This document shows positions 7,791-54,519 of a stretch of DNA of 64,000 bases, in pieces. The notes beneath the pieces are model-generated. The model worked only from the letters and a program-made list of their open reading frames with translations, searched no databases and had not been told where the DNA came from. Position numbers and translations under genes: made by a program. The first letter of the stretch is position 1. Each line of letters begins with the position of its first letter. The DNA comes from Austropuccinia psidii. Lineage: Eukaryota; Basidiomycota; Pucciniomycetes; Pucciniales; Sphaerophragmiaceae. The stretch spans positions 13,268,273-13,332,272 of the forward strand of contig JALGQZ010000018.1 in NCBI GenBank assembly GCA_023105745.1. Direction: 5' to 3'.

Positions 7791-7799
7791 GTATTTTAA

Positions 7800-27151: not shown

Positions 27152-27156
27152 TCTCA

Positions 27157-30930: not shown

Positions 30931-30954
30931 TGAAAGCCTCTCTAAATGAAATTT

Positions 30955-31518
30955 TCAGGCTTCTGAAAAAATGATAATGTAATGAATATAAATTATTAAC
31001 CATGTGTTCAATGATTCATGTGAAAAAATGGTATTCATGATTCTTTGATAATGAGAGGGTGTATTTTTAATTCTGAAAGGCATCCTAAAATACTCATAAA
31101 TACCACAATGAGCAGTTATTCTCCATAATTTCTTAGAATGAGGTGTAAGAACATTCTGATAGAAACATTTAAGTGCATCCATAGAAGTAATGAATATATC
31201 TTTGGATAATTGAGTCAAAGTCTCATGGATTATAGAAATTGGATAACTGTCTGGAATTGTATAGGTATTAAATGCTCTAAAATCACAAACCATCCTTGAT
31301 TTAACATTATGCCAAGTAATGATTACATGGGCTGTGAGCTCAACTTCCTCATTATTTCCAACTTTTCTGAGAACACCCATTTTCATTAGTTCATTAATAT
31401 GAGACTCTAATTCTTCTCTAGCTCTAGGGCTGGCTGGGTAAGCTTTTTCTCTTAATATTGGAGGATAAAGTCTTTCCACATTACACATAATGTCCAACTC
31501 ATGGCCTTTAATAGACAC
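30955..31518 (-). pseudogene. Reverse transcriptase fragment of A-minus (187 codons open)
   Basis: The longest surviving frame of this element. It runs from GHELDIMCNVERLYPPILRE through SHINELMKMGVLRKV, MVCDFRAFNTYTIPDSYP, TSMDALKCFYQNVL and FRMPFRIKNTPSHYQ to the active site. Here the YIDD box reads YIHY, so both catalytic aspartates of the box are lost. The frame is therefore open but the enzyme would be dead. This fits decay without selection after insertion. Confidence 0.85.
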
Positions 31519-31680
31519 TAGTGGTTAATTATCAGAAGCAATGGCTTCTCTGAATTGAAATAGAATTAAAATAAGGTCTTCCTTCATTTTTGATGTCAAT
31601 TAAGGACCAATTTATGCTCCAGTTAACTGACCATTCACAAATTTCTCCTTATTAAAATTTTCTACTTGTATTATGAAAAT

Positions 31681-32225
31681 TATTTCCTTCTTCTCTAAAG
31701 GAAAAGCAAATTTTTTTCTTGCATTTTCCCCTATAGTGAAATATCTTTCTTGAGGAATATTAATATCAATACCATAGATATTAAAATAAGAATTTTCTCA
31801 TATGAAATGTTGTTTGGTACAATTATTGATCACAAAAAATTCAGCTTTCAGTCTGAAAATTCCTGAAGGGTGAGGAAATCTTATTGCTGCTTCCAAAATT
31901 CCCAAATGGTGCATGTATCAGCTAATACTCCTGAATTTTATACCTTCAATTAGCATCAATTTTATTTCCTTCTTCTCTAAAGGCAAAGCAGATTATTGTC
32001 TTGCATTTTTCCCTATAGTAAAATATCTTTCTTGAGGAATATTAATATCAATACCATAGATGTTAAGATAAGAATTTGCTGGTATAAAGTGTTGTTAGGT
32101 ACAATTATTCATCACAACAAAATTCCTGAAGGGTGAGAAAACTTATTGCTGCTTCCAAAATTCGCAAATGGTGCATATATCAGCTAGCACTACTGAATTT
32201 CATACCTTCAATTGGCATCAATTCT
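31681..32225 (-). repeat. Direct tandem duplication in the protease region of A-minus (period 282 bp)
   Basis: The block starting TATTTCCTTCTTCTCTAAAG at 31681 recurs at 31963. The second unit runs to about 32225 and follows the first through the ATACCATAGAT and CCTGAAGGGTGAG blocks, with scattered differences and one small deletion. A-plus has this region once, so the duplication happened in this copy. It inactivates the protease further. Confidence 0.85.
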
Positions 32226-34559: not shown

Positions 34560-36645
34560 TAGTAGCAAATATCAAGAGTACTATGAATTTTCCCAGTAGA
34601 AAATTGAATATAATTAAATATTATTGCCACAAATCAATATAATTATCAAAAATGATTTAGGAATGAGAAATCTTGATAATTCTAATAAATTATAATTATT
34701 CTAATATTACTATAGTCACTGAAAGCTATAGTGATAGGGAATATAAAAGCTCTTAATGAGACAATTATATGTTCAAAATAATAATATTCAACCACTTATA
34801 AATAATAAAAATAATATTTATGACAGATATATCACACACACTGTGCATAGATAAATTGTATAGAGAAAGTCCATATAAAAAGACTAATACTAGATAAAAA
34901 AGATCTAGAAATTTAGAGAAAATGTATCCATAATATTTATTTGATACAATAATTCAAACAAAAACCGCTTAACAGCTATAGTATTAAATAATTTTTTGGG
35001 CTTAAAGAACACCAAAAAAATCAATATTTTAAAGAAATAAAATACTTTCATATTATTAAATATTATTTTAAGAGTTTCAGAAGAAATTTGTGGATTTAAA
35101 AGATGTTTTAATAGAACAATTTTATATAACAAAATCTATCATTGGTAATTAAAACATAAAATAATCTCAATTCTATGATTTGATTCCTATATTTAGAATT
35201 TATAAAGAGTAAAATAACTCAAGATTTATATTGATAAGATAAGCTTTTATATTGAATAAAATATTACCTGTTTAAAATGTCTGGTTGATTGAATGATTAT
35301 TGTTCTGGAGAAAAACAGTTATGTGAAGGCTCTTTTTATGCCTTCAGGGAGGCTCTCATTATTAATAATGAATATAAAGAGCCTTCTCAGGTAAAAACTG
35401 AAAAGCAATGCTTAAAGATGAGGTTCTTAACTTGGGGCCACTTAATTTTAATTCCAATTTAAAGTTGCCAGTGTTATTCTTAGCTTCAAGTAGCTTTAAT
35501 CCTCTTTTTTGGTTAATTATTTAAAGCTTAAATATGAAGTAAGCTTATTTATATTTAAGTTAATCACATGAACAACTTAAAAATAAAGTTTCAACCTAAA
35601 ATATCTTGAACTTAATTTTTAACTAATTTTTCAAGAAATCTTAATTTTATTTAATAATAATTAGGAGAGCTAATATCGATGCTAATTACCAAAGAATCCT
35701 GTCTCAGAAAGATATTCATAATTCATTTTAGAAAAATATAACATTGGATTGTAAGCTGTGTGAAAGCTTGAAGAAAAACAATTAAGAATTGGATTTTTAA
35801 TGAGTTTTTGAAGTTAATTCTGTTTTTCCACATACAATAGCAATACATACCAAACCTTACTGTTTGATAAGGTTTTAACACTTATAGATATAAATTTTAA
35901 GCTTACTTAAGCTTTCACAGTTCTCAAAGCCTTGATTACAAGTATGCATATGGGGATTTACCCTTTGGCAGCTTGTAATTCCTGTTCAAATGGGGATAAG
36001 CCATTTTGAGCTGTAATATTCAATAAAATACTAATTTTAACCTTTAATTAAGGTTGGAAATCCTCCAATACAGGTGGAAAACATTCATTGAGCTCTTGCA
36101 GATCCCAAAGGCTGTGTCACCAGGCTATATTTGGCTTTTTTCCTTTGTGCCACCCTCTTATATGAGTTTTCCCTTTTATTAATTTAAAGCCATAAAATGG
36201 CTTTAAACCAATTTAAATTGAGATCACACAGGATTTACAGCCTGCATGGCAGATCCTTAGCCAATTCAGTAAATATACACCACACCTTAACTTGAACCAA
36301 ATTTTTTGTAATTTTTCATAAAGCTTATGCAACTTTAAATTTAAGCTTAAAATTAACAACTTAGAAATTTCTATTTTTACTGTGAGATTCATAAACCTTC
36401 AAATAACATAAGCAATAGCCACTTTTGGCTATAACAACCTATGGGTCTACCATAGGTTGTTTTTGGTGTAGAGTCCAAAAATGAGATAATATATATAAGT
36501 TTGTTCATAAAAAATAAAGTTATACTAATTTCTTATCATTTTTTTGCTTTAAATATATATGATAGGTCTGTTCAAGACTAAATCAACTGTATAAAAACTT
36601 ATTTGTGGCCTGATGGGTATGTCATCCATACCTCACAGGCTCACA
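34560..36645 (-). mobile_element. Solo LTR of family A in the A-minus leader (2086 bp, one end truncated)
   Basis: Inverse of an A LTR, ending at 36645 with GGCTCACA. The other end is lost: it stops at AGTAGCAAAT, about 40 bp short of the CCTTACA terminus. The leader of A-minus continues on both sides. To the right (36646-37171) is the equivalent of A-plus 3455 to about 4025, and to the left the equivalent of A-plus from about 4028 onward. The LTR therefore inserted into the leader of its own family, and the end deletion removed the target duplication on one side. Confidence 0.75.
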
Positions 36646-37171
36646 CACCAGGAATTTCCCTGAAAAATGACACTAGAAGCAAGGTATAAGTTACTTTTAT
36701 TAAAAATAAATAGAAATTAATAACACAGCTAATGGATTAAAGTTCATAAAAATTGATTTATGGAAAATTACATCAAAAATAAAAAGCAGAAGCAAATATT
36801 TTTTAGTAAAGATTTTTTTCAATTTTTTCAGAAAGAATAGTTACTCAATTAATAAATCATTAACCAAAATTATATTATTATTGACTTCATACTAGAATAA
36901 CTCAAAGAATAAATTTCAAGTCTGTGATGTGAAAAAGTCATTACTTATACAATAGATACATATTCCAAATCACTAAATTCTATATTGTTTGAAATTAATT
37001 CTAAGAAAAGTAAATTCATCAAAATTATAAAGATTATTTATAAGGGATAAGTCCCAAAAAATGCAATAATATGTGTGTATATGGCAGTTTTATGTCAAAA
37101 TGGATTAATATGAGGTCTAGAATATGATTTATGTCCCAAAAATTGGTTGAAATCATGTCCAGGCCCCAAGA
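36646..37171 (-). other. First part of the A-minus leader with the candidate primer-binding site
   Basis: Inverse of A-plus 3455 to about 4025. The conserved GGGGCCTGGACATG block next to the 5' LTR (about 37154-37168) is the candidate primer-binding site. The TTTGGGACATAAATCAT and CACATCACAGACTT blocks downstream are shared with A-plus. No coding sequence is present. Confidence 0.7.
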
Positions 37172-37332
37172 TTTAAGGTTTGTATATGAAGATCTTGATA
37201 ACATTAAGAAAAATCAATAGTACTATGACTGTCCTCAGTAGAAAATAGAATAAGTTTAATTATTAGAGCAGAGAATTAATATATTTATTATAATAATTAT
37301 ATAAAAAAAAGAAGAATTAATTATTATAAAAG
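37172..37332 (-). repeat. 5' LTR of A-minus, fragment 1
   Basis: Inverse of the terminal 160 bp of the A LTR, beginning near AAGGTTTGTATATGAAG. The LTR is then interrupted by element F at 37333. It continues at 51512. Confidence 0.8.
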
Positions 37333-37939
37333 GGTTTTGGTAAAAACATATAAGAGCTTATGTGTTTTTACTAAGAACTTACGTGTTTGGGCCATAAATT
37401 GGTAAAAACACGTATGTTTTTGGAAAAAACATGTAAGGGGTGCCCTGGGCCCATTTTTAATTAAAAATGAAACACAATTGGGCCTGTATTGGGCCAAAAC
37501 ATGCCCAAAAGAGGTTTTTTCATTATAAAACCTCTCTAACTCCAAATTGTTTCAGATTTTTTTGCCCAGCCCCCCCAAAAAAAACAATCCCAAACACCCA
37601 AATAATCCACATTATCCCCACCCCAAACCATCGTTTTTTTTGAAAAACAGCATTACCAAAGCCATTTTGCAAAGCTTTTCACACTTTTTTTTCTTTTTTT
37701 CCCCCAAAGACTGCATTTTCCACCACAACAACCTGCTTTCAAGCCTCTCAATTTTCAATTTTTTACCTTCCCTCATCTATTAATCCCACATTTAAACCAC
37801 TTTCTTTCACTCTTAGCCACTTCTGTTCATTTTTCACACCTTTTTTCACCTCTTTCTCACATTTCGAAAGGTTGTTACCCCATTCCAAATCCCCCAATTC
37901 CCCCTTTTTTACACTTTTATACATATTTTTCATTAAAAA
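37333..37939 (+). promoter_or_regulatory. Left TIR and 5' region of element F
   Basis: The first 120 bp carry three copies of a GTAAAAACAYRT or ACTWASAACTTACGTG type block, in both orientations. From 37550 to 37930 the plus strand is rich in pyrimidines (C and T runs), as often seen in promoters and leaders of basidiomycete genes. No coding sequence is supported before the ATG at 37940. Confidence 0.5.
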
Positions 37940-38453
37940 ATGCTTCAACCCCCCACTGAAGGTGAATTTCAGACCCTTGAGCTTCTTTGGCAACATGTGC
38001 ATAATGTTTCCAGGGCTCAGGGGTATGCTGTGTCCACCTTGAGGTCCAACATGACCCACAACCAAATTGAAATATGTTGTGACAGGTCTGGAACCCCAAA
38101 TCCCAACAAAAGCCCCTCCAAAACAGTCACCTCAAGAAAGCTTGACTGTCCTTTTAAACTTTATGCCAGAAAATATGCCAAGAGTACCACTTGGACTCTT
38201 AAAGTCAAAAATCCTGAACATAGCCATGATGCCACTGAAATTATCATGGCACATCCTGATTTCAGGAAATTCAATGAGCAAGAAACATCCCAAATTGCTC
38301 AAATGTCTGAATCACTGCTCATGCCAAGGGAAATTCAGGCCCAATTATGCAGCCAGAGGGAGTCTGAAAGGCCTGTAATCCCTCAAGACATTTACAACCA
38401 AGTCAAGAAAATCAAGAAAGACAAACTGCAAGGCAGAAGGCCAATTGATGCTC

Positions 38454-40070
38454 TGTCACAGGGGCTCTTATGGAAGCAAGAAGGCCTGCACTCAGCAATC
38501 AAGAACTCACTTGAAGGGCTATAAAATATGATAAGAAATACTATGGAATATATTTCTTAAGCAGGAATAAGAGCGAGGAAAAATATGTCAAAGATAACAA
38601 AGAATAATGAGAAGGAAGCCAAAGGCCAAAGGCCAAGAAGCCAACCAAGTGAATCCTCAATTCACTGTTTCAACCTGCCAGAAAAGGAATGGAATTAGTA
38701 AAGGATATGACCACCAATATCCACTGACAGGCAAGGAAGAAAAAGAGAAAGGGTGCTAATGACTGACTTAAGATTATCAGTATTAACTTTAATAAGGTAA
38801 AAGAAAATAAAGATACAAATAAATCCAATATATTAATTAACTGGGGAAAAAAGTCCCCAGGTGATGAAAGGTGGCCGGTATATGTGAAAACTTGAAAGAT
38901 TGATCCTGGAAGGTGAATCAATGACTGTATTGTCCGAATTGGGAAATACAGTTCTGGCCATCTTGAAATTTGAACTGTGTGATGGAATTCACACAGTGGA
39001 ATATGAAATGGCCCAATTGGGCCAAGGCCATACAGGTTGATGGAATGAGGCCTGTCTGGATGAATTGAGTTGTCCAAGGAGTATGGAAATACTTGATGCC
39101 TTGACAACTGATTGCATTGATTTAATACCTCTTGAGAATTGGCCCTTTGAGTAATCCTGAATAATTTACCAACCCAACTCCTGCAGGTACAGGTGGTTGG
39201 GATCCTTGAAGAGTCTTCTGATTCCCGCCATAACTTGTCAGACTGATGAGCTGAATAATCCTCCTTCAAGATGGGCGTTGGATTTTGAGACCTTGATATG
39301 GAAAGATGGAAATGGGTCCTGAAAATGTCACCATTGGATTGCTGAGCAAAAATGGTGCATAATGGTATATAATACCATATATGCACCATGCCTGCAACCT
39401 CAAGTACGGATGGTATGAAGGAATGGAAATAATTCCCCATAGGTTGAGGGGAAGGCTGACTGAGCTGATCTGGTGCCCTCTGGCCGTTGCCAGAGGCCAT
39501 GGCTGAGATATTGGTCCATGGTGGTCCATGGCCAAAAATGGGTCCTATGGGATTTATGGCCAAATTGGTGTCCAGAAGGTCTTTGGCCAATTTTGGGTCC
39601 AAGGGATTGATGAACAATTTTGGCTCAGGTGGGTCAGAATGTGGTTTGGGACCCACCTGGCTGCCCCCTTTGGCCCCTTTTGGCCTCATTGGATTAGGCC
39701 AAAAGGGGCCTAATTGGCCTACGGACTACAGACCGTAGGAGCTGTAGGGGGCCTAAGTGGCCCAAAAAGACCATGTAGGCCTAAACACCCTTAATGAAAA
39801 GGGGTGGCCTGGAGACCCCCAGAAGACAAATGGACCCCTCCGGGCCCAAAATCAAAGATGAAGGCCTGGGGGTTGGTGAGGTGGAAATTGGCCAAGAAGG
39901 CCAATGACGGCAGGATATGGCCCTTGGAATGGGTTATGGCGTAAGATCCATAGAGCACCCAAGGGGCCAATTGGCCATAAATGATATGACGTGACCAATT
40001 GGCCCTAACTTGGCTCCAGGTTGGATTGCCGCAATCATCAAGGAGGAGGGTCAAACTTGTGGTTGTGACA
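38454..40070 (-). repeat. 3' LTR of element E (1617 bp)
   Basis: Near-identical to 46646-48269, apart from about a dozen differences in the first 140 bp, an 18-20 bp indel near 38625 and scattered changes. A perfect 15-bp inverted repeat with a 9-base loop lies at 39672-39710. A frame of 339 codons is open on the minus (sense) strand at 38670-39689. It has a proline-rich, periodic start (PLDPKLAKDLLDTNLAINP). It is also open in the other LTR, but no known domain is recognised and I do not call it a gene. Confidence 0.93.
39672..39710. repeat. GC-rich hairpin in the E LTR
   Basis: GGCCCCTTTTGGCCT (39672-39686) and AGGCCAAAAGGGGCC (39696-39710) are perfect inverted repeats around a 9-base loop. 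The same hairpin is kept in the other LTR (about 47891-47928) although nearby sequence differs. It could be a structured part of the RNA such as the repeat region, or a pause or polyadenylation signal. Further GGCC-rich inverted pieces follow it up to 39780. Confidence 0.8.
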
Positions 40071-40861
40071 GTACCCCCTACCTTGAATGGTGAGCTCCTG
40101 AGCACCAAGATAAGGTAGAAGCCTGTTGAGGCTGTTGAGACGGATTGGACAGAGGGATTACAGAGGTATTTGAATCTTGCAAAGAAATTTTGAACTGATA
40201 ATGATGTTGGAATATGAATTGAGGTTGACGTAGTCTTCTCTTGACATTTGGCTTTGAAAATGTTGAAGGATTGAATTTGACATAAAATTTTGGCATAAAG
40301 ATTATAATAAAAGAAAATTAAAGGAAAGATAAAGATAAAGAAACAGATATAAAGAAAGGAAAATAAAAAGAAAAAAGAAAAAATGAATTTTGAGGGGGAG
40401 TCTAATCTTCATCACGGATTTTGATGGTTGATTTGAAAGTGGCCAGGGACCTGGATAAAGGAATTTGATGCCAGGTGCTCACAGAGTGGCCAAGGTGATG
40501 GTTTGAAAAGATTGTAGACCACTCAGGGAAGTGCACACCAGGAGAGGAACTTACTTTTAGTAGTTGCCACTCCCGCCAGAGCCATAAATAAGGATATAAA
40601 CTTGATAAAGGATTGTATTGAATTGGAAAACTTGGAAAGAAAATTAAAAGTGAAATGGCCCATTTTCCAAATGAAAAATGGCCATTATTTGGAATTGATA
40701 TTGAAATCCAGGCCAAAGAATCTGTGTCCAAAACACAAAGTGCTCACAGAGTGGCCAAGGTGATGCTTACCACGAAGAAGAGTAGAATACCCCTAAAGGT
40801 GCATACCAGGAGTGGGACTTACTTTTGGTAATTCCTCCCCTCACCAAGCACCATAAAATGA
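40071..40861 (-). other. Non-coding tail of element E between pol and the 3' LTR
   Basis: About 790 bp between the pol stop and the LTR, without a supported gene. It contains a polypurine tract next to the LTR and an internal duplication: the CTCACAGAGTGGCCAAGGTG block occurs at about 40478-40497 and again at about 40742-40761, each followed by a matching AGGAGWGG-ACTTACTTTT block. Confidence 0.7.
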
Positions 40862-43800
40862 TCAAGCTTTTGAGGAATTGGGTCCTGGCTTGTCAGGATA
40901 CAAAGAATGGAAATCTTTGACAAGTTCAGGACAGTTCTTGAGGTTTTTGGCTGGTTCCCAAGTGGATCTTTCTGGGTCTTGACTGAAACCTTTCCATTCC
41001 ACCAGATACCATAATTTTCCTCTCTTGAGCTTTGAATCCAGTATTTGAGAGACTTCCCATTCCTCTTCTTCTTCAATGATAATTGGAGGAGGAGGCTCTT
41101 GATGCCAATTTGGGATTGCTGATGTCTTGACTGGTTCCAGAAGGGAAATAAGGAAGACTGGGTGGATGGATTTCCATTGAGATGGAAGCTTGAGGGGGTA
41201 AGCATGAGTACCGACTTTCTTCAAGATTGGAAAAGGACCCAACCATCTTTCAGACAGTTTTTTGGTGGGTCTGGTTGATTTGATGTTCTTGGAGGAAAGC
41301 CATACCATGTTGCCAGGATGGAAAACAGGTGGACTTGCTCTACTTTTATCTGCATACCTCTTAAACCGGTTTATGGCAACTTCAAGTTCTCTCTTGACAT
41401 CTTGTTGTACTGATTGGATTTTTGTTGATAAATTTCCAGCAGGGGTATCTTGAGTAATGTGAACTGAGTCATATTGTGGATCTCTTCCATAAACCATGAA
41501 AAACGGGGATTGCTTGGTTGAAGAGTGATCAGAATTATTGTAGGTGAATTCAGCCAGAGGGAGCCAGGTGTTCCAATCATCTTGATGATAACTGACATAC
41601 ATCCAAAGATACTGTTCTAGTATTTGATTTACCCTCTCCGTCTGTCCATCAGTTTCTGGATGATAAGAAGTTGACAAGTCTCTTGAAATCTTGAGCTGCT
41701 GACAAAGATTGGTCCAAAAAGAAGAAACAAAGAGTGAACCTCTATCACTGACAATGCTTAAAGGAAGGCCATGCTTTGAAAAGATATTCTTGATGAATAA
41801 ATGGGCCAAACCCAGGGAAGTTATTGAAGACATTGTTGGAATAAAAACCACCATTTTTGAGAATCTGTCCACTATGACCAGGATGGAATTAAAGGAATTG
41901 GACAGCGGCGGTTGAGTGATGAAGTCCATTGAAAGACAAATCCAAGGGCCATTTGGAATTGGAAGAGGTTTGAGGAATCCAAACTTCTTATGATGAGTAT
42001 TCTTGTTTCTTGAGCACTGTTGACAGGATGAAACATAATCCTTGATAAATTGAGTCATGCCGGACCAGTGGAAATCCCGCTTGACAAGTTTGAGAGTCTT
42101 CTCTTGGCCAGGGTGGCCGGCTAGAGGAGAATTGTGACTCTTTTGAAGAATACTAAGTTGAATTGTGGAGCCATTTGGGACTACCACTTGATCTTTGAAG
42201 AGAAGAAGTTGGGAAGAGGAATCAAGAGAATAATCTTGGACAGATTTACCTTTACCCAGATCTTCAAGGATGCTTCTGTAATGAGGATCTTGCCATAATT
42301 TCTTCTGAATTGAATCAATCAAATTTGGAAAAGATTCCACCTTGACTGCAAAATACTTTGAGGGTTGAACTTCATCTTGCTTAATGATTTGTTGAAAATT
42401 CATTGGATTCTTGCTGATGAAATCCTCCCCCCTCTCCGGATAAACATTGTCCTGACGTGATAAGGCATCCGGAAGAGTAGCTAGGCGGCCTGGGCGGTAA
42501 GTGATTGAAAAATGAAATTCAGAAAGGAATTCAGCCCAACAGGCTTGACGGCCAGTGAGGGATTTGGAGTTCATGAAGTATTGAAGGGAAGAGTGATTGG
42601 TAAGAACTTCAAAAGGGGAAGACAATGGAAGAAGAAAAGCCCTCCAACGCTTGAGAGCCCAGACAATGCCAAGGAGTTCCTTGTCATGAATTTCATAATT
42701 GAGCTCTGCTGGGATAAGCTTGCGGCTGTTGAATGCAATGGGATGTTTTCCTGAGTCAGAGACCTGACTCAGTAAAGCACCCAAAGCATAATCTGATGCA
42801 TCGGTCTCTACAGTGGTGGGTAGAGAAGGATTGAAGTGGGAAAGGATTGGAGCAGTGGTGAAAGCCTCTTTGAGTTGGTGAAACTGACTGAGAGCTTCCT
42901 CATTGAGGGGAAAACATGAATCTTTCTTGAGGAAACTGGTGAGTGAACTGATCTTCTTTGAATAATTCTTGATGAAACAGCGGCAGAAATTGGCAAAGCT
43001 AAGGAAAGATTGAAGAGCCTTGAGGTTTCTTGGAGGCGGCCAATTGAGAATCTGCTAGACTTTTGCTTGGTCCATCTTGAGGCATTCAGAAGAAACTACA
43101 TAACCAAGATAGTCCACACTTGAAACATGGAACAGACATTTGGATGCCTTAGCAAAAAGGTTATTGGCTCTGAGTCTGGAAAGAACAGAGGATACATGAG
43201 TGACATGTTTTTCCTCAGATTTGGAAAAGAACATAATGTCATCCAAATAAACCACAACATAAACATTGAGAAGATCTTGAAAGATATCATTGACAAGATT
43301 TTGAAAAGAAGCAGGAGCATTGGTGATCCCAAATGGCATAACCAAGTACTCATAACTGCCATATTTAGCTTTAAAACAAGTCAAGTGTTCATCACCCTCC
43401 TTGATTCTGAGCAGGTTATATGCACCACTCAAATCAATCTTGGAGAAGATAGAAGAACCATTAAAAACATTGAGAAGCTGATTCATAGGAGGAACAGGAT
43501 ACTTGTTCTTCTTAGTAACAGCATTGAGTTTGCGGTAATCAACACACAAACGGAGGCCACCATCTTTCTTTTTGACAAAGAGGACAGGTTCTCCTGTTGA
43601 AGAGGAGCTTGGCCGGATGAAACCTTTCTCTACATTCTCTGAAATTTAGGCCCTGAGTGTATCTGACTCTTGTTTGGATAAAGAGTAGATCACCCCAACT
43701 GGAGGTAGATACCCCTCCAGCTTGATATGATGATCACAGGCGTGGTGAGGAGGACGTTTTTCTGCTTTCACCTTGGAGAATACATCCAAGTATTGGTGAT

Positions 43801-44590
43801 AAACAGAAGGAACAACCTTCATCACAGTTTCTACTTCTTCTGGCTCTTCCTCTTCATCCCACAACTCCTCCAGGGAGTCATGATAAGATGAGGGAGGAAG
43901 GTCCATATTCCCAAATAAGAGATGAAGTGAAGATACAGAATTATCTTCTCCAACATCTTGAATCTCTTTGAAGACTTCATCTCTAGGAGATAGTAATGAC
44001 TGTGGGGAATTAAGGGAAGGAATATGGACAGAAGACAGAAATGATGGTGTTCTAGAATCACCAACCAGAGCTGCACATGATTTGGCAGAAGAAAAGTCAT
44101 TACAGAAAGATTTATAAGGATCAGAATAGTCCAAATGATCAGGATGAAGGGTGATCAGCCCTTGCCTCCAATCAATAGAAGGATTAAAGTGATTTAGAAA
44201 GTCAAAGCCCAATATGAGGTCTTCTCCCTTGGGAGTATCAATGACTAAAGAGTCCCATTCAAAGCTTGGGAAGGAAGGGAGCTCAACCATATATTTAGTA
44301 TGGTGAGTCAAAAATAAGGAAGGAGACTCAGAGGAGTCAATAATGATAAGGGGAATCTTCTCTGGAAGTTCTGAAGTAGTCAATGAGTACTTGTGAACAA
44401 ACTGATTTGCAATAAATGAGTGTGTAGCACCAGAATCAATGAGAATACTGTAAAAAACATCAGAAAGAGAAAAAAAAACAAAAAATTTAAGAGAATTTTT
44501 GACACCAGTATTCAGAATGCACAATTGTGCTCTGGAAGGAAAACTGTGAAGACCATTGAACAGAACATGGTCTCCACTCAGGCTTTTCCC
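40862..44590 (-). pseudogene. Pol polyprotein of element E (protease, RT, RNase H, integrase, chromodomain)
   Basis: One continuous frame, -1 relative to gag, broken only by TAA at 43646-43648 and TAG at 43055-43057. Protease: active site DSGATHSFI near 44435, then [27 protein letters not shown] and the YLDD box near 43240, all intact. RNase H: ETDASDYALG and HDKELLGIV are intact, but the third catalytic site reads LTNHSSLQYF, with Asn for the usual Asp. Integrase (in the last 640 codons, 42784-40862): HHCC finger His217, His224, Cys254, Cys257; catalytic Asp287, Asp347 and Glu383 intact; GPF module near GPFPILKK; chromodomain WEVSQILDSKLKRGKLWYLV onward, with WKGF and WEP. The element was mobile recently, but this copy has at least three inactivating changes. 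Confidence 0.93.
44548..44590 (-). promoter_or_regulatory. Candidate -1 programmed frameshift signal between gag and pol of element E
   Basis: On the minus strand, a slippery heptamer G-GGA-AAA (44584-44590) lies in the gag frame, one codon before the gag stop TGA (44578-44580). After an 8-nt spacer (44576-44583) comes a 9-bp stem with one G-U pair (arms 44567-44575 and 44548-44556) and a 10-nt loop. A one-base backward slip at the heptamer enters the pol frame exactly. Heptamer, spacer and stem are in the classical arrangement for retroviral Gag-Pol synthesis. Confidence 0.75.
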
Positions 44591-45898
44591 TGGCTGGGAA
44601 ATTGGCCTGACCGTTGGGTAAGCTTGTTTTGAGGTCTTTTGAAGCAAGACTCAAGACTATGCTTCCCACCACAATAGGTACAAAGACCCTCTTTGATTCT
44701 TCTCTCTTTTTCAGAATTCATGACCTTGAATTCCTTATTCAGCAAAGAAGAATGGGGCTTGTCCCTCTTCTGAAAATTCTTCTTCTTCTTGTGACTAGAA
44801 CTTGAAGAATTTTGAGGATGAGAAGTACTTGATCTTGGGCCCTCAAGTTTCTTCTCTTGATAGTAATTCTTCTCATTTTGCCTTTAATGGTACCTGGTAT
44901 CAAGTTCCAGGGTAACCTCCATTAAGACTTGGAGAGAATCAATTCTTGAAGGATGGGAGGACAGTTGATCCAATATCCTGGATGGCAATCCCTTCCTGAA
45001 ATGATGGATGAGAGCTCTTTCACCCCAATCCCCGATTCTTGATACTAAGCTTCTAAAATAAGCAATGTATAGTGATACATGCCCTCCTTCTTTCATTCTT
45101 AAGGAATCCAACTCTGCTTCTGCTTTTCTGACTTCATTCGGGTCCCCAAACAAAGTGAAGAGTTGTGATTCAAATAAATTCCAAGAATTGAGAAGGTATT
45201 TGGGATCTTGATTGGTGAGATTGAAAAGATAAGGCTCAATCCATTTTGCAGCCCTGCCAATAAGAAATGAAGTGGCATAAAGAACCTTCTTCCTGTCTTG
45301 AGAGAATTTTGCTGGATCATTATGAAAAATTAATTGACAAGACTGGATAAAGCTTCTGACTTTGAAGGGCTGAGTCCCATCAAAGCATTCTGGTGCCTTC
45401 ATAGATGGAGTCTTGAAGGCCGGTGGTCCTGATGAATCAGAAGAAGAAGCTGCTTGAAGATTGGCCATAATCTGAGTCATTTGCTGCATAATGGCCAATA
45501 AAGATGGTTCAGATTGATGAGAGACAGGCTGATTAGACTGGGCTAGAGTTGGTCCTCCAGTACTTTGGGATGCCTCCACCGGAGCAGGAACACCTTCAGT
45601 ACCATCAGACTCTTCCTCTTCCACAGAATTCTCCTCCTCCTCTTGACCAACTTCACCTGGACCTTTGAAACTAGTCCTTGAAATGCCTGGAAAACTTCCA
45701 ACTACTCCTGAGAAAGAATTTGATCTTCTTGGCACTCTTCCTTCCTTCCTGGATGGTGCTGCTCCTTCCATGCAGGGCCCTCAGTTGAGGAACTGCTGGG
45801 GTGCCATCAAGAGGAACTGTTGAAGTAGGAGTAATAACAGCTTGAGCTCGAGCCTGAAATCTGGTCTGTCTTGCAGGAGGTGATTGTTAGAGTGGCAT
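44578..45898 (-). pseudogene. Gag of element E
   Basis: The main frame runs from ATG 45771 to TGA 44578-44580 (397 codons) and contains one TAA at 44884-44886. An acidic stretch (EEEENSVEEEESDGTE) is followed by the capsid core (FDGTQPFKVRSFIQSCQLIF, AAKWIEPYL, LFGDPNEVRKAEAELDSLRM, RKGLPSRILDQL), the retrotransposon-gag domain. A zinc knuckle follows, CTYCGGKHSLESC near 44643-44681, a CxxC-x3-H-x4-C form. Upstream, a proline- and alanine-rich segment (ARQTRFQARAQAVITPTSTV) from ATG 45898 is in another frame and has a stop after three codons. It looks like the true N-terminus, lost by a small frameshift near 45772. Gag would coat the element RNA. Confidence 0.9.
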
Positions 45899-46645
45899 GA
45901 TTGAATAAGAATAAAAAATAAAATTTTAAATGAATAAGATCAAAACTTGAATAAAGACTTGAGGATCAAATCAAATCAAATCTTGAGGGAAAATATCAAT
46001 GAATCAATTAAAATCTTCAGGTATGTCAATTCAATCAAAATCAAATTAGTCTTGAAGTCAAAATAAATATCAATGAAAATCTTTAAGTCAATAAAATCAA
46101 TCAATCAAGTCAATGAAATGAAATTTTGCAGTGAAAATCAATCAGTCAAATGAATTCTTTAGTCAAAATCAATTTATGTCGAAGTCTTGATGTGAAATTC
46201 AGCAAAGTCAATGAGAAAACTTCAGGTCAATCAATTATCTTGATGTCAATATTAATTATGTCAAATCAGTCAATAAAATCAATTATCAAGTGAATTCTTC
46301 CTGAAAATCAAAACTCTTGAAGAAAAAATCAAATTGAATCCTGATATGAAGAACGTGTCTGAATAATCTGATGAGAAATTTGAAAATAAAAATGATAATA
46401 CGCCTGAATGAAGGATAAAAAATGAGATTAATGATTGAGATTAAGATTGAAAAAGATAACAAAAATGAAAATGGGTCAGATTTCAATTTTCAGAATGAAG
46501 AATGAATGAGAGAAAATTGAGATGTGACAAAGAATCATTAAATTCATAAGCATTAAAGAGTCATAATTTCAAAGAATGAATTAATGAATAAAATGATGAA
46601 GAATGAATGAATAGAATGAAAGAAATTATGAGTTAATTAATATAA
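45899..46645 (-). other. Leader of element E
   Basis: About 750 bp between the 5' LTR and gag, made almost wholly of TCAAT/AATCA-rich low-complexity sequence. Directly after the LTR the sense strand reads TTATATTAATTAACTC. This has no TGG, so a standard tRNA CCA-end primer-binding site is not apparent. Self-priming or an internal tRNA site is possible. No coding frame is supported. Confidence 0.6.
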
Positions 46646-48269
46646 TGTCACAGGGGCTCTTATGGAAGCAAGAGGGCCTGGCACTCAGGAATCAAGAGCT
46701 CACTTGGAGGGCTCCAAAAGATGATAAGAAATACAATGGAATATATTTCTTAAGCAGTAATAAGAGAGAGGACAAAGAGGTCAAAGATAACAAAGAATAA
46801 TGAGAAGGAAGCCAAAGGCCAAAGATACAAGAAAATCCAAAGGTCAAGAAGCCAACCAAGTGAATCCTCAATTCACTGTTTCAACCTGCCAGAAAAGGAA
46901 TGGAATTAGTAAAGGATATGACCACCAATATCCACTGACAGGTGAGGAAGAAAAAGAGAAAGGGTGCTAATGACTGACTTAAGATTATCAGTATTAACTT
47001 TAATAAGGTAAAATGAAATAAAGATAAAAATAAATCCAATATATTAATTAAATGGGGAAAAAAGTCCCCAGGTGATGAAAGGTGGCCGGTATATGTGAAA
47101 ACTTGAAAGATTGATCCTGGAAGGTGAATCAATGACTGTATTGTCCAAATCGGGAAATAAAGTTCTGGCCATATTGAAATTTGAACTGTGTGATGGAATT
47201 CACACAGTGGAATATGAAATGGCCCAATTGGGCCAAGGCCATACAGGTTGATTGAATGAGGCCTGTCCGGATGAATTGAGTTGTCCAAGGAGTATGGAAA
47301 TACTTGATGCCTTGACAACTGATTGCATTGATGTAATACCTCTTGAGAATTTGCCCTTTGAATAATCCTGAATAATTTACCAACCCAACTCCTGCAGGTA
47401 CAGGTGGTTGGGATCCTTGAAGAGTCTTCTGATTGCCGCCATAACTTGTCAGACTGATGAGCTGAATAATCCTCCTTCAAAATGGGTGTTGGATTTTGAG
47501 ACCTTGATATGGAAAGATGGAAATGGGTCCTGAAAATGTCACCATTGGATTGCTGAGCAAAAATGGTGCATAATGGTATATAATACCATATATGCACCAT
47601 GCCTGCAACCTCAAGTACGGATGGTATGAAGGAATGGAAATAATTCCCCATAGGTTGAGGGGAAGGCTGACTGAGCTGATCTGGTGCCCTCTGGTTGTTG
47701 CCAGAGGCCATGGCTGAGATATTGGTCGATGGTGGTCCATGGCCAAAAATGGGTCCTATGGGATTTATGGCCAAATTGGTGTCCAGAAGGTCTTTGGCCA
47801 ATTCTGGGTCCAAGGGATTGATGACCAATTTTGGCTCAGGTGGGTTAGAATGTGGTTTGGGACCCACCTGGCCTTGGGGGCTAGGTGGCTGCCCCTTTTG
47901 GCCTCATTGGATTAGGCCAAAAGGGGCCTAATTGGCCTACGGGCCGTAGGAGCCATAGCGGGCCTAAATGGCCCAAAAAGGCCATTTAGGCCTAAACCCC
48001 CTTGATGAAAAGGGGGGCTAGTGGGCCTGGAGACCCCTAGAAGACAAAAGGACCCCCCAGGCACAAAATTAAAGATGAAGGCCTGGGGGTTGGTGAGGTG
48101 GAAATTGGCCAAGAAGGCCAATGACGGCAGGATATGGCGTAAGATCCATAGAACACTCAAGGGGGCCAATTGGCCATAAATGATATGACGTGACCAATTG
48201 GCCCCAGCTTAGCTCCAGGTTGGATTGCCACAATCATCAAGGAGGAGGGTCAAATTCATGGTTGTGACA
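46646..48269 (-). repeat. 5' LTR of element E (1624 bp)
   Basis: Direct repeat of 38454-40070 with the same ends. The minus-strand frame (46881-47867, 328 codons) is also open here. The hairpin is at about 47891-47928. Being the 5' LTR of a minus-strand element, it would hold the promoter that drives gag-pol leftward. Confidence 0.93.
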
Positions 48270-50811
48270 TGCTCTTATTGACACTCTCAAACAAGAAAAT
48301 TTTGCTTGGTCCTCTGCAAGGGATTCTGAGGGACACATTACCTCCTTGTTTTTTACTCACCCCCTGGCCATAAAACTTCTTCATGGCTTTCCTCATGTCA
48401 TTCACATGGATTGTAATTATAAAACCAATTAGTAAAAAATGCCCCTTTTTCATATTGCTGGATTCAGCTCAACCAATAAGACATTTTCTGGGGCTTTTTG
48501 TTTGATGAAGAATGAAAATGAACCTTCAGTTCCTTGGGCATTAAATCAATACATAGAAAAGGTCATCAACAACACCAGTCTTGTTCCCCCTCCATTTATT
48601 GTTATTGACAGGGATCTGGCCTTGAAAAACTCTATTAAGAAGCTCTTCCCAGACTCCAAAGTCATGCTATGCATTTGGCACATCAACAAGGATGTATCTG
48701 CTCATTGAATGAAGAAAATTGGTCATGGAACTAATTTTGGAAATTTTATGGGCCTTTGGAATCAAGTAATATACTTCTTCACTTTATTTCACTTTTTTTC
48801 TTATTATTGACTTTATTTATGACTTTGGGATTAATTTCTCAGGTTATGTATTCATCCACTGAAGGGTCTTTCAAAGACAACTGGAAGAAGCTTCGAAAGC
48901 AAGTCAAAAATCCTGATGTCTTGCAATATTTGGAAAAGATATGGCTTTCTCTACAGGAGTATTATGTGCCAGCCTGGACCAACCACCATTGCCACCTGGG
49001 TGTGGGCTCCACCTCCAGAGTTGAAGGTGCCCATGCCATAGTTAAACTTTGGCTCCAAAGGTTCACTGGTACTATCCTGGAGGTAGTCAGGGCTCTCCAC
49101 ATGGCATTCAGAAAACAATTTATTGAAATAATCAACAGAATCTCCAAAGAAATGATTGTCCATGTCAAGAATTTTCCTCCACACATCTGTGCCCTCAATG
49201 GCAAGGTGTCTCATTATGCTGTTCAGATTGCCTTTGAAAATTTCAAAACAAAATTTCCTCCAAATGAAAAATGCACCAACAAATACAGCAATTATAAAGG
49301 CATTCCTTGCAAGCATAAGACCCAAAAGGCAGTTGCCAAGCGCCAAAGGCTTGAATTATCAGACTTCCATCCTCAATGGCATTTGAATATGCCTGTGAGG
49401 GTTTTTTAATTTCTTCTTATTATTATTTTTCTTATTAAATGATTTTATTTGTCATATTCTTCTCAGGCTGGTTTTCAAGGTGATGATCGAAGTGTTGAAA
49501 AAGAAAGAAAGAATGAAGCCAAGAAAATATTTGAAGACATTGGGGAAGACCTGTTTCAAAGACCAATAGCAGAAATCACCCCAATACTTCAACATTTTCA
49601 AGATGTTTTGAGTGGAAAAGTCCCATTTGATCAAATTACCAAGAGTCAAGAGGATGATAAATATTATGAAGACCCTCTAGAATGCAAGAATATCCGTGGA
49701 AGACCCCAAGGAGACAAGAATAAAAACAAAAGAGAACCTTCAAGATTTGAAATTATTGAAAGTCAATCCAAGAGAAGAGGAAGACCCCCCTCAAAAGTGA
49801 TGAGTGTAACAACGTCAAGATCCCAGTCAAATGTCCCCTCTCCAATTATGGAAGTGGACTCATCTGAAGATTCTGAGGACTCATTATCTAAATCCATCAG
49901 TTCATCAGATTCGCTACCCTCAGCAACTGAATTAAATAAATCAGAAGTAACCCTGAGAACGTCAAGACGATTGGCAATTGGAAGCAAAACCTCACAAAGA
50001 AAATCACACAAGCCTGCCACCAGTTTGAATATCTATGATGCAATTGACTTGACCTGTGAGCATTGTCAAAGCAATTATCACACAAGTGATGAATGCTCCA
50101 AGCTGTTTGTGAGTTTCTGATTCTTTTTAATGTAATTTTTTGTTGTTTATTTTGCTATTTATACATTTATGAACGCAATTTATCAGATAACTGGCTCAGA
50201 AGACTTTCCCAAGTTTATATTGAAATACACCTTCAAGGCCATCAATGATCATAGTGATGGAAACTGTGGCTACAGAACAGTATCCCACTTCATTTACAAG
50301 ACTCAAGATCAATGGGCTGATGTCAGAGGTGACTTGGCTGAAGAAATTCACCAAAATAAAGACCTTTATGAAGCCATGAACACCTTAATTCCCTCAGTCT
50401 CCTCTTATTTGGAAAGAATTGAATGGTATGAAGATGTTGGCCAGGCTCCAAAAAGCAAGTGGATGTCCATTCCTGACATGGGGGATCCAATTGCAAATAA
50501 GAATAAAACACCAGTTTTCTTTCATTCCACAGCCCAATCTTTTTCTTTTTTTCCCTTATTTCTGTCCTCCAAATTATAATCCCCCCATTTTCATCTGCTT
50601 CTTGAATAGTTGTGCTCATTTTGTTCCTTTGGACATTATCATTTCTAAAGTTTATCCAGTCCCCCCCATTACTGTAAACTGGGAGATTCATGCCCAAACA
50701 CAAGCCCTGGGGTGGGCTGATAAATTTAAGAAACACAGAATGTTGTATTTGTCCAATCTTCCTCCCCCCTCTCAGAAAAAACCCACTTTTTTGGAGGTTG
50801 ATTCTGATTGA

Positions 50812-51511
50812 ATTATTTTTTTATATACAATTTATGCCAATTATCCCCCTCCTCAGTCATATTTATTGCTTAAATCCCACCTCAGTCTCCTTTTTTTATC
50901 AAACATGTGGAGCTTTTGTACTTGAAAATAGTCATATTACACACAAGAAAAAAAACAGTTGAAAAAAACACTCATTGTGCCTTCACTTGTTGTCCCACCA
51001 AAAAAGATTTCCCAATTCATGAGCTTCTGGTTCTTTATTGTCCAGATTGAACCCTTCAACTTTTAAAAAAAATGAAGGAAATTCATAAGTGGGAAGTTAT
51101 TAAATCCACTTTTTAAAAATAGGCATATTACAATGACAGGAAAAAACATTTGAAAAAAACCCTTTTTGCACCTTCACTTGTCCCACCCAAAAAAATTCCC
51201 AAAATTATGGGACTCTGGTGCTTTATTCTTCACATTGAACCCTTCATTTTAAAAAAATGAAGGAAATTTATAAGTGGGAAGATTTCAAATGAATTTTTGA
51301 AAAAAATATGCCATTTTGGCATATTGGCCAAATTGGTGAAATTTGGAAAAAAAAATATTAAAAAAATTTGTGCTTATTGACATGCCAAGTCGGGAAAAAT
51401 ATGGCAAAAAACAATTAAAAAAATCCTCAAAACTGAGCCTGAGGAATTTTTCTTGAAAAATAAGGTCACTTACATGTTTTTACTAAAAGCTTACGTGTGT
51501 TTACCAACACC
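50812..51511 (+). repeat. 3' region of element F with an imperfect tandem repeat and the right TIR
   Basis: Two direct copies of a block of about 190 bp start with CATATTAC at about 50932 and 51122. Each contains a CCTTCACTTGT...CCCAMC block, a TTCTTTATT... block, and AATGAAGGAAATT-ATAAGTGGGAAG. The same module occurs once near the right ends of MITE-1 (about 53700-53810) and MITE-2 (about 58680-58785). It is therefore a conserved subterminal part of the family, possibly a transposase-binding array. The TIR occupies the last 60 bp. Confidence 0.75.
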
Positions 51512-53023
51512 CTTACAAAATAACTTGATAATAAAACATTATTAATAATTATATTAAATTAGAATTATTCTATTATTATTATAGTCACTGACAGTCATAA
51601 TAATAACAAATATTAACACTCCTGATGAGAAAATCATAGGTTATAAGTAACAATATTCAACCAGTTATAAGTAATTATAATGTTATTTTAAAAAGAAATT
51701 ATCACACACACTGCACGGAGAGAAATCTTCTAGAGGAACTCTAAATAAAAAAATAGAAATACAGAGAATACTTACTTATAGTATGTATTTAATACAATAA
51801 GCCAAACAAAAAATATATTATTGAATAATTTTTATCAGTGTAAGATATTCCAAAAATAAATATTGTTAAGGAAATAAACAATTTTTATGATATAAGGAAG
51901 ATTTAAGGACTTTTAGAAGAACTTGTGGATTTAAAAGATACTTGAAACAGCAATTTTATAATACAAAACTAAATATTGGTTATTAAAGCAATATAATATT
52001 AATTCTATGCTTTAATTTATCTAATTTACAGTTTGTAAAGAGTTAAAATACCTTAATAATCACTTCAAGAATATAGGACTTTATATATCATGCAATATTA
52101 CCTGTTTTAAAATACCTTATTGATTGAATGATGATGAAGGACAAAAACAGTGATGAAAATGCTTCATCTATTCATTCAGAACAGATCTCATCAAAAATAA
52201 TATATATAGAGGGTGTTCCCATATCAAAACTGAAAAACCACATTTAAAAGATAAGTTTCTTAACTTAAAGCAGCTTTTTTTTCATCTTAATTTAAAGTCA
52301 CCAGTGTTATTATTGACTCCAAGTAGCTTTAATCCTCAATTGAGATAATAATTTTAAGCTTTGAGATAAAATTCATTTATTATTATTAAATATTATCAAA
52401 TTTATAACCTGAAAACAAACTGTCAAGAAAAACTTCTTTTAAATAAGATTTTTAATTAATTATTATAAAAATCTTAATTTTCTTTAAGAATGATTAAAAG
52501 AGGTATTTTCATGCCTAAATAAAAAATAATCTTGCTGATGAAATATACTTAAAAATTTAATTTATACAAATATATAAGTCACTTATAAGATGGGTGAAAG
52601 CTTAAAGTCAATCCATTGAGAATCAGAATTTCTATAGATTTTTGAAATTATTGCTATTTTTCTATGTAAAAATAGCAATACACAGTAAAAATTCAATTTT
52701 GATAAGGTCCCAATTCTTTCAAGCTTATTTGTACTTAAATGAGCTTAGACAACTCTTAAGACCTTGATAAAAAGCCTGCATATAGGGATTTACCATTTGT
52801 CAGCTTGTAATTCCTGTCAAAAGGAGGGATAAACAAACTTACACTTTAATGCTCAATTAAATTTTAACCTTAAATTTTTAATAAGTTTTGTAATCCTTCA
52901 ATAGATGAAGAAAACTTTATTTGGGCACTTTAAGATCCCAAAACTTGGGTATCCTGCCGCTTTTTTCCTTTTTTACTTTCTCTCACTGTTTTGCATTAAT
53001 TTTGCGCTTTTATTTATTTAAAG
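51512..53023 (-). repeat. 5' LTR of A-minus, fragment 2
   Basis: Inverse of the central A LTR, with the conserved AGTCACTGACAG, TCTCATCAGGA and AAGCTTATTTG blocks. It is bounded by element F on the left and by MITE-1 on the right. Confidence 0.82.
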
Positions 53024-54063
53024 GGTTTTGGTAAACCCACTTAAAAAAATTGGTAAAAACATGTAAGCCCTCATGTTTTTTTACTAAAAATGTATGTGCT
53101 TTTTCCATCAATTTGTAAAAACATGTAAGGGGTGATTTTTAAATGAAATATGGCTATTTCTGCCATTTCTGATGCAATTGGTTCCATTAATGGCATTATC
53201 AATGCAATAAAGGGAATTATTAATGCCATAAATGGCATTTTTAATGCCACAAATGGAATTTTTAATGCCATAAATGGCATTATTAATCCCATCAATCGCA
53301 TTTTCAATTTCATTTTTGGAATTGTTGAGGCCATTCATTCCATTGTTAATGGCCTTAACAATGTCATTTTTGAGGCCATTTATGGCATTGTTAAATGCAT
53401 GAATGGCATAGTTGATGCCATACAATTCCATATATGAAATTTACAATGCTATTTATGGCACTGTTTTAGTTCCATTTATTCCAATGTTATCACCATAAAT
53501 GGCATCTGTATGTCATTCTTGATGCCGTTTATGGCATTATTATGTCATTTGTGATGCCATTTATAGCACTGTTAATTCCAGAAATGGAATTTTAAATTCC
53601 ACTCATAATAGATTAAATTTTGAATTCAATGAATGTCATAAATGGCATTTTCAATTTAATTAAAAAAATGAACAGAAAATGTGAAAAAAGGGACTTTTTG
53701 GGCTTAAAATTGTCCTGGAAAAAAAATCCCAAAATTTTGGGGTTCTGGTTTTTTATTCTCAAGATTTCTCCCTTTATTTTGAAAAAGAATTATGGAAATC
53801 TATAAGTGGGAACATGTTCAATGATTTTATTTTTCAAAAAATAGGCCAAAATGGAGAAATTGGGCAAAAAAATGGAAAGATTTGGGGACCTTCACATCCC
53901 ATGTTGAAAAAAATATGGCAAAAAAATTATAGAAATGCTAAAAACTCAAGCCTGGGAATTCTTCTTTCAAAAAAAGTCACTTATGTGTTTTGGCCATAAA
54001 TTGATAAAAACATGTAAGGGCTTACATGTTTTTACTAAAAGCTTATGTGTGTTTAACGACACC
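53024..54063. mobile_element. MITE-1: F-related non-autonomous TIR element (1.04 kb)
   Basis: The left end GGTTTTGGTAAACCC and the inverse of the right end GGTGTCGTTAAACACACATA match the TIRs of F. The flanking 10-bp sequences are TTATTTAAAG (53014-53023) and CTATTTGAAG (54064-54073), 8 of 10 identical. The host LTR continues cleanly on both sides. Internally it holds a 21-bp palindromic tandem repeat and the F subterminal module. No transposase is present, so it depended on another copy to move. Confidence 0.85.
53150..53620. repeat. Palindromic 21-bp tandem repeat inside MITE-1
   Basis: A degenerate unit of about 21 bp with the core ATGCCATAAATGGCAT (7-bp arms, 2-base spacer) is repeated through this stretch, most regularly at 53160-53430 and more loosely to 53620. 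Because the unit is palindromic and a multiple of three, both strands stay open. Plus reads NAINGII-like 7-residue repeats (53150-53437). Minus reads similar repeats in two frames (53071-53334 and 53108-53431). These look like products of repeat expansion rather than genes. Confidence 0.85.
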
Positions 54064-54519
54064 CTATTTGAAGTCATGAAAATTTAAATTGAGGTCACAC
54101 AGTATTCACATAGCCAATTTAATCAATATACACAACACCATAAATTTTAACTGAATTCATCTCAAGTTTCATAAGCCTTATGAAACTTCAAAATTAATTT
54201 TAAATTGAGCAATTTGAAAGTTCTATTAAAAATTGTTAAATTGTGTAACTATACTGTGAGATTCTTGAAAATTCCAATAACACTAGAGATTTCCGCTTCA
54301 AGGTATAGAACCCTATGGGTCTAACCTATGCTATTTATGGTGTAGGATCCAGAAACAAGACAATATTCATAAGTTTGTTTATCAAAAATAAATTTTTACT
54401 TACCTTTTATTATTTTTTTGTTTCAAATTAATTTGAAAAGTCTGTTTATGACTAAATAGAATGTAGGGAAAGTTATTTGTGGCCTTATTGGTAGATCATA
54501 AACACCTCACAGGCTCATA
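54064..54519 (-). repeat. 5' LTR of A-minus, fragment 3 (element start)
   Basis: Inverse of the first 450 bp of the A LTR, including the GC-rich motif near 54302-54330. It ends at 54519 with CACAGGCTCATA, a slightly mutated inverse of TGTGAGCC. This is the right outer edge of A-minus. Confidence 0.85.

What the first reader, a model, noticed from the sequence alone, without database searches (positions are those of the whole stretch)
37940..50811. MULE transposase fused to an OTU-type cysteine protease domain, with five other binding modules
Seen: after a MULE DDE core and SWIM finger, the gene adds AT-hooks, an acidic/serine linker, a CCHC zinc knuckle and a domain with an OTU-style DGNC motif plus a downstream AHFVPLD histidine. 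Established: OTU domains are deubiquitinase-like proteases, and plant MULEs are known to carry ULP1-type (SUMO protease) domains. Inference: this is an analogous but different protease capture in fungi. It may protect the transposase from ubiquitin turnover or process it. The arrangement of FAR1 finger, DDE, SWIM, AT-hook, knuckle and OTU on one chain deserves proper description.
Basis: partly seen in the sequence, partly recalled or inferred. Interest (0 to 1): 0.8.

Follow-up and report, generated by a model that had tools for sequence, protein, structure and literature searches.

The report
Rust-fungus jumping gene with OTU-like protease
A broken copy of a jumping gene, probably from the myrtle rust fungus, carries at the end of its transposase a domain resembling enzymes that strip ubiquitin from proteins; many related copies share this tail, so it is a real part of the element, though a related combination was already known from a Hydra transposon and the enzyme activity is unproven.

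Summary
Window 37332-51512 is one Mutator-like element (MULE): termini alike at 12 of 13 bases, a probable 8-bp target duplication, and flanks that fit an empty site in an older repeat. Its gene (37940-50811) encodes a FAR1/WRKY-GCM1-type finger, a MULE DDE core, a SWIM-like motif, two AT-hook-like motifs, an acidic linker, a CX2CX4HX4C knuckle and a C-terminal OTU-like domain (DGNC, then HFVPLD). The copy is dead: a 9.8-kb Ty3/Gypsy element sits in it, with three in-frame stops and a frameshift. The OTU-like part is no stray exon: of 171 collected relatives 50 carry it, 47 of these with the same linker and 4 with a transposase module. These 50 are all Austropuccinia psidii (myrtle rust). OTU assignment rests on motif, weak profile hits and database labels; Pfam's cut-off is missed and two structure predictions failed. 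The SWIM motif lacks one of four ligands. OTU in a MULE is already tabulated for Hydra, and occurs in Ginger1 and Helitron transposons. So: a fungal variant of a known kind. I favour a deubiquitinase that protects the transposase or its partners, unproven. No whole-length protein was found.

The parts
37332..51512 (+). Whole MULE element as it stands (with the retrotransposon inside). Termini GGGTTTTGGTAAA / GGGTGTTGGTAAA (reverse complement), 12 of 13 alike; probable 8-bp TSD TTATAAAA / TTACAAAA, one mismatch
   Evidence: Termini and TSD; flanks align to adjacent positions (3294 and 3296) of an older repeat copy; a 39-bp inverted match 37399-37437 / 51469-51507 (34 of 39; score 53 against at most 47 in 20 shuffles), weakened by the motif's 13 occurrences in the window
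37940..38453 (+). First coding part: FAR1/WRKY-GCM1-type zinc finger (C in 38072-38083, C in 38144-38155, HxH in 38216-38227)
   Evidence: Pfam AFT above cut-off, FAR1 below; N-terminus matches the annotated protein P0049
38454..48269 (-). Ty3/Gypsy LTR retrotransposon inserted in the MULE gene, 5-bp TSD TGCTC, LTRs 38454-40070 and 46646-48269 (92.4% identical over 1651 columns, 61 of them gaps), coding strand minus: gag, protease, RT, RNase H, integrase, chromodomain
48271..48765 (+). MULE DDE core: D in MDCNYKTN (48406-48429), D in VIDRD (48601-48615); in-frame stops at 48430-48435 and 48706-48708
   Evidence: PF10551 67.9 bits for 48436-48708; coordinates
48766..48842 (+). Predicted intron, 77 nt, GTAATA...TCTCAG, phase 0
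   Evidence: annotated relative P0054 reads across this point
48843..49394 (+). DDE glutamate (SRVEGAH, 49014-49034) and SWIM-like motif (C in 49269-49283, C-x-H in 49302-49316), three of four canonical ligands
49395..49466 (+). Predicted intron, 72 nt, GTGAGG...TCTCAG, phase 0
49467..50108 (+). Linker exon: AT-hook-like motifs (49692-49706, 49773-49787), acidic/serine stretch (49857-49913), CX2CX4HX4C knuckle (50055-50096)
   Evidence: linker found in 47 of 50 OTU-bearing relatives
50109..50186 (+). Predicted intron, 78 nt, GTGAGT...TATCAG, phase 0
   Evidence: annotated relatives such as P0001, P0002 and P0042 read across this junction
50187..50811 (+). OTU-like domain: DGNC in 50253-50276, HFVPLD box in the downstream frame; a frameshift between the two (about 50534-50580)
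53023..54064 (.). About 1.04-kb non-autonomous relative with the same kind of termini and a probable 8-bp TSD TATTTAAA / TATTTGAA (7 of 8); contains a 21-bp tandem array
   Evidence: termini and flanks printed (right end and TSD read by eye); array

Best explanation
It is a decayed autonomous MULE of a rust fungus (Austropuccinia psidii or a close relative, inferred) whose one gene made a transposase with DNA-binding modules on both sides of the DDE core and an OTU-like cysteine-protease domain at the C-terminus. Shown: the modules, their order, the element's ends, the retrotransposon that broke this copy, and that the OTU-like tail is shared by many relatives. Inferred: the domain cleaves ubiquitin or a ubiquitin-like modifier and works in cis, at the transposition complex, removing modifiers from the transposase or from chromatin or repair proteins bound near it. 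Most likely it prolongs the life of a protein that the host would otherwise mark for turnover. I give the anatomy about 0.85 and the deubiquitinating function about 0.4.
For: MULE core and finger. Termini, TSD and fitting flanks. Three phase-0 GT-AG introns between DDE core, DDE-E/SWIM-like, linker and OTU-like exons. Of 171 relatives, 50 carry the OTU-like part, 47 of them with the linker, 4 with a transposase module; 13 carry transposase plus linker. In one search, 31 of 41 hits are named 'OTU domain-containing' and one 'Ubiquitinyl hydrolase 1' by UniRef. Profile of seven trimmed domains (7 of the 50, those with a readable C-terminal half) against PDB: 10 hits at E up to 10, three named OTU (OTUD5 twice, OTUD1; E 0.13-1.1) and three named 'RNA-dependent RNA polymerase' (E 0.0044, 0.011, 1), which I recall as viral OTU protease domains; the best two align on DGNC. 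Pfam OTU matches 6 of 7 trimmed domains and 13 of 21 proteins, at E 0.01 or worse. Among relatives C is kept in 45 of 48, D in 43 of 48, H in 5 of 6 readable; C to H is 117 residues in P0051. OTU or another DUB class is carried by Ginger1 (PMC2836005, passages) and Helitrons (PMC9741609, passages), whose authors propose related roles.
Against: Shown Pfam scores are 14.3-16.3 bits for OTU (cut-off 23.3) and 12.0-13.9 for otubain C65 (cut-off 24.3); single members hit unrelated families at like or better E-values (LXG 0.0086; CCDC106 0.0097). The other four of ten PDB hits are calcium-binding proteins (3) and deoxyguanosine kinase (1). NCBIfam gave no OTU for 7 of 7. AlphaFold2 gave mean pLDDT 39.3 and 44.6, so the papain-like fold is unshown. 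Two after the His stands V (5) or I (1) in 6 readable copies, not the Asp/Asn usual in OTUs (recalled). Catalytic columns do not stand out: C is above 67%, D above 39%, H above 31% of the columns of its half. None of the 171 spans FAR1 to OTU; the longest A. psidii one is 575 aa. No transcript evidence was available. Four distant relatives of 612-648 aa have no OTU.
Confidence: 0.5

Rival explanations
1. The OTU-like domain is catalytically inert or weak and serves as a binding module, for example for ubiquitinated chromatin, on the transposase.
For: Sub-threshold OTU profile scores; no Asp/Asn two after the His (6 of 6 readable copies); catalytic columns do not stand out from neighbours.
Against: The consensus keeps D, G, N, C and H although the sequence lies below Pfam's cut-off, which suggests past constraint on those residues.
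Confidence: 0.3
2. The OTU-like domain is made as a separate protein, from its own start or by alternative splicing, and acts in trans beside the transposase.
For: 29 of 171 annotated proteins hold only acidic linker/knuckle and the first half of OTU, several starting at MEVDSS; P0050 skips the linker exon.
Against: P0042, P0044 and P0050 read from transposase modules into OTU; phase-0 introns keep one frame. The models starting at MEVDSS may only be first-Met choices in decayed copies.
Confidence: 0.15
3. Incidental capture: the OTU piece is a host gene fragment picked up by some copies and of no use to the element.
For: MULEs tend to acquire host gene fragments (abstract of PMC6446971); the copies seen are decayed.
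Against: 50 of 171 collected relatives carry it, 47 behind the same linker. The searches were partly made with the OTU exon, so 50 of 171 is no frequency.
Confidence: 0.08

Closest known systems
MULE Hop group 35, sub-group 'plants, Phytophthora, Puccinia and Fungi' (Dupeyron et al. 2019, PMC6446971, table read)
   Same: FAR1 in half the members, CCHC, C2H2 and SWIM fingers, TIR 30-220 bp, one ORF, Basidiomycota among hosts
   Different: No OTU listed for this group; placement of the present element in the group was not tested by a tree
MuDR-6_HM, Hydra MULE, group 14 of the same table
   Same: MULE transposon listed with 'Ovarian Tumour Gene'
Ginger1 DNA transposons (PMC2836005, passages)
   Same: DDE transposase with a C-terminal OTU (or Ulp1) domain
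   Different: Gypsy-type integrase, CCGG/CCGT TSDs; the hosts in the table seen are animals
Helitrons/Helentrons with OTU or VTD deubiquitinase domains (PMC9741609, passages)
   Same: Transposon protein with OTU; authors suggest such domains prevent degradation of proteins needed for transposition; transposon OTUs untested for activity
   Different: Rolling-circle RepHel protein, no DDE transposase
Mutator transposons with Ulp1 (plants, hydra, lancelet; named in PMC2836005; the name KAONASHI is recalled)
   Same: MULE plus ubiquitin-like protease
   Different: Ulp1 instead of OTU
Plant FAR1-MULE proteins named 'PKS-NRPS hybrid synthetase' (P0168 Lactuca, P0171 Tanacetum)
   Same: 33% and 30% identical to P0049 over 85% and 98%: FAR1-type finger, DDE, SWIM-like, GRP motif
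   Different: The two models seen lack OTU; that other plant members carry one is recalled, not tested

Membership tests
Mutator-like element (MULE) | MULE DDE/RNase H-type transposase domain | tested here: met
   PF10551 67.9 bits against cut-off 27.6; D, D and E present
Mutator-like element (MULE) | Terminal inverted repeats | tested here: met
   Termini GGGT[T/G]TTGGTAAA, 12 of 13 alike; inverted 39-bp match, a motif also found elsewhere in the window
Mutator-like element (MULE) | 8-11 bp target site duplication | tested here: inconclusive
   8 bp with one mismatch; flanks fit one site of an older repeat
FAR1/WRKY-GCM1-type zinc finger | C...C...HxH ligands and profile match | tested here: met
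   Window: AFT above cut-off, FAR1 below; P0049 AFT 19.5, below 21.6; ligands present and invariant in five relatives
SWIM zinc finger | CxC...CxH, four ligands | tested here: not met
   Second Cys absent in window and five relatives; no Pfam SWIM listed for the window piece, P0049 or four distant relatives
CCHC zinc knuckle | CX2CX4HX4C | tested here: met
   50055-50096
OTU cysteine protease | Asp and Cys in a DGNC box | tested here: met
   relatives D 43 of 48, C 45 of 48
OTU cysteine protease | Downstream catalytic His | tested here: met
   HFVPLD in the window in another frame; H in 5 of 6 readable relatives, 117 residues after C in P0051
OTU cysteine protease | Asp/Asn two residues after the His (recalled; not universal) | tested here: not met
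   V or I in 6 of 6
OTU cysteine protease | Profile score above curated cut-off | tested here: not met
   Shown scores 14.3-16.3 bits, cut-off 23.3
OTU cysteine protease | Papain-like fold | tested here: inconclusive
   AlphaFold2 mean pLDDT 39.3 and 44.6; no fold search was run on these models
OTU cysteine protease | Cleavage of ubiquitin or a relative | not testable with these tools
   needs a bench assay

The most novel reading that the evidence does not exclude
A rust-specific capture, independent of the Hydra case, put an active OTU deubiquitinase onto a FAR1-type MULE transposase, and deubiquitination in cis helped this family multiply in a gigabase fungal genome.
Probability: 0.2. Interest if true: 0.65.

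Novelty: new variant of a known kind. Interest (0 to 1): 0.4.

Why it matters
Ulp1, VTD and OTU proteases recur on unrelated transposon proteins, which hints that ubiquitin signalling limits transposition; according to PMC9741609 no transposon OTU had been tested for activity (passage). A fungal MULE family with an OTU-like tail in many copies gives a further lineage in which to ask whether the protease is under selection and what it cleaves.

Tried and rejected
Structure: two AlphaFold2 jobs (P0051 with 21 rows; P0004 with 39 rows) gave mean pLDDT 39.3 and 44.6. The alignments hold only near relatives, so I ran no fold search on the models. Diversity: scans of viral contigs with the OTU alignment and the MULE alignment, of genome contigs with the MULE alignment and of viral contigs with a DNA pattern for WMxMPDMG found no relative; these collections may leave out records near the window's genome. 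Conservation of catalytic columns as a sign of selection was tested and not found (50 of 170 proteins passed the score and identity filters, 48 readable at Cys, 6 at His). Host identity is an inference: 41 of 41 and 20 of 20 hits and 116 of the 120 listed (235 found) are A. psidii MF-1, and the window has GC 0.314 and CpG observed/expected 0.13, fitting the reported 33.8% GC and CpG depletion (PMC8063080, passages); no record identical to the window was sought. Literature: ten searches of the held library; I saw the listings (titles, starts of abstracts), and none named an OTU-bearing fungal MULE. Subscription papers are mostly not held, and Babu et al. 2006 (recalled as relevant) was not held. 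Papers seen: passages of PMC2836005, PMC9741609 and PMC8063080; passages, abstract and part 3 of section 3 of PMC6446971. A whole-length reading of the transposase was considered and not made.
Full report
What is there. The element's ends are at 37332 and 51512: read inward they begin GGGTTTTGGTAAA and GGGTGTTGGTAAA, 12 of 13 alike, and the outer 8 bases agree at 7 of 8. The sequences left and right of the element align to neighbouring positions, 3294 and 3296, of an older repeat copy elsewhere in the window, as expected of an insertion. A 39-base inverted match (37399-37437 with 51469-51507, 34 of 39, score 53 against a largest of 47 in 20 shuffles) is weaker evidence, because its motif occurs 13 times in the window. 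A small element at 53023-54064 has the same kind of ends and a similar 8-base duplication (partly read by eye).

The gene is broken. A Ty3/Gypsy element with 1.6-kb LTRs (92.4% identical over 1651 columns, 61 gaps) and an exact 5-base duplication TGCTC occupies 38454-48269; its minus strand encodes gag, protease, reverse transcriptase, RNase H, integrase and a chromodomain. The MULE frame has stops at 48430-48435 and 48706-48708, and DGNC and HFVPLD of the OTU-like part lie in different frames, whereas relatives such as P0051 and P0053 read from one to the other.

Modules. The N-terminal finger matches Pfam AFT above its cut-off and FAR1 below; its ligands are present and invariant in five relatives, though AFT in P0049 is below the cut-off (19.5 against 21.6). 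The DDE core matches MULE at 67.9 bits. The SWIM-like motif has three of four ligands, in the window as in five relatives (one rust, two plant, two from unnamed sources). Two GRP motifs, an acidic serine linker and a CX2CX4HX4C knuckle follow. The last exon holds the OTU-like domain. The three predicted introns are 72-78 nt, GT-AG and in phase 0.

Is the OTU-like part really in the transposase? Three protein searches gave 171 proteins: 41 with the OTU exon, 20 with the downstream exons and 110 further ones among the 120 listed, of 235 found, with an alignment of ten MULE-family proteins. A module scan of the 171 (eight probes taken from P0049, P0046 and P0051) found the OTU-like part in 50, with the linker in 47 of these, and with a transposase module in 4 (P0022, P0042, P0044, P0050); 13 join transposase and linker. 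P0049 runs from FAR1 to the first GRP motif. P0022 joins FAR1 to OTU, an internally deleted copy or an odd gene model. None of the 171 spans the whole chain. So the fusion is supported by overlap, not by one intact protein, and since the queries partly were the OTU exon, 50 of 171 is no frequency.

Is it an OTU? For: DGNC and a later His; 31 of 41 hits bear the UniRef name 'OTU domain-containing' and one 'Ubiquitinyl hydrolase 1'. A profile of seven trimmed domains gives 10 PDB hits at E up to 10: three named OTU (OTUD5 twice, OTUD1; E 0.13, 0.14, 1.1), three named RNA-dependent RNA polymerase (E 0.0044, 0.011, 1) that I recall as viral OTU protease domains, three calcium-binding proteins and one deoxyguanosine kinase; the best two align on DGNC. 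The 21-row alignment gives 4 hits: two of those polymerase entries (best 0.0046), the kinase and OTUD1. Against or open: shown Pfam scores stay under the cut-off, and single members hit LXG (0.0086) or CCDC106 (0.0097) as well; NCBIfam, a prokaryotic library, gave no OTU for 7 of 7; both structure predictions failed; V or I stands two after the His; catalytic columns do not stand out among copies. I therefore write 'OTU-like'.

Where it comes from. The 50 OTU-bearing relatives are all Austropuccinia psidii MF-1; composition and CpG loss fit the published account of that genome (PMC8063080, passages). Four of the 120 listed are not (P0153, P0168, P0170, P0171). They share finger, DDE, SWIM-like motif and GRP motif, two of them also a knuckle, but their models, 612-648 aa, have no OTU. 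P0153 and P0170 stop just after the knuckle, where the rust gene has an intron before its OTU exon; whether an OTU exon follows in their DNA could not be seen.

How it may work. The finger, GRP motifs and knuckle would bind DNA or RNA, the DDE core cuts and joins, and the OTU-like domain would strip ubiquitin or a relative from the transposase or from proteins around the break. Only the anatomy is shown. The authors of the Ginger paper suggested a role in repair signalling, those of the VTD paper protection from proteasomal degradation.

Known or new. Dupeyron et al. list an 'Ovarian Tumour Gene' for the Hydra MULE MuDR-6_HM, and FAR1, CCHC and SWIM without OTU for a Puccinia-containing group. 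Ginger1 and Helitrons carry OTU. The combination with FAR1 and knuckle in a fungal MULE was not named in the listings of the ten literature searches, within their limits. I rate it a new variant of a known kind.

Noticed in passing
53023-54064: Small non-autonomous element with the MULE's kind of termini, containing a 21-bp tandem array at 53184-53422; it sits in another copy of the older repeat.
   Followed up: partly
1317-12210 and 23332-36646: Two related large elements in opposite orientation with about 2-kb direct terminal repeats (84% identical in the first); further copies of that repeat at 51518-54517, 59265-59717 and 15449-15891.
   Followed up: partly
whole window: The motif TTGGTAAAAACATGTAAG occurs 13 times with up to 3 mismatches against 0.17 expected, partly as inverted pairs.
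   Followed up: partly
20164-21965 and 61225-63015: Direct repeat of about 1.8 kb, 81% identical, nature unknown.
   Followed up: no
13395-14471, minus strand: ORF of 358 codons containing MILFLDWDKTITSSD, resembling a HAD-type phosphatase (recalled motif), possibly a host gene.
   Followed up: no
whole window: CpG observed/expected is 0.13 over the window, 0.10 in the MULE parts and 0.16 in the Gypsy insert, as expected of heavy deamination of methylated repeats.
   Followed up: yes
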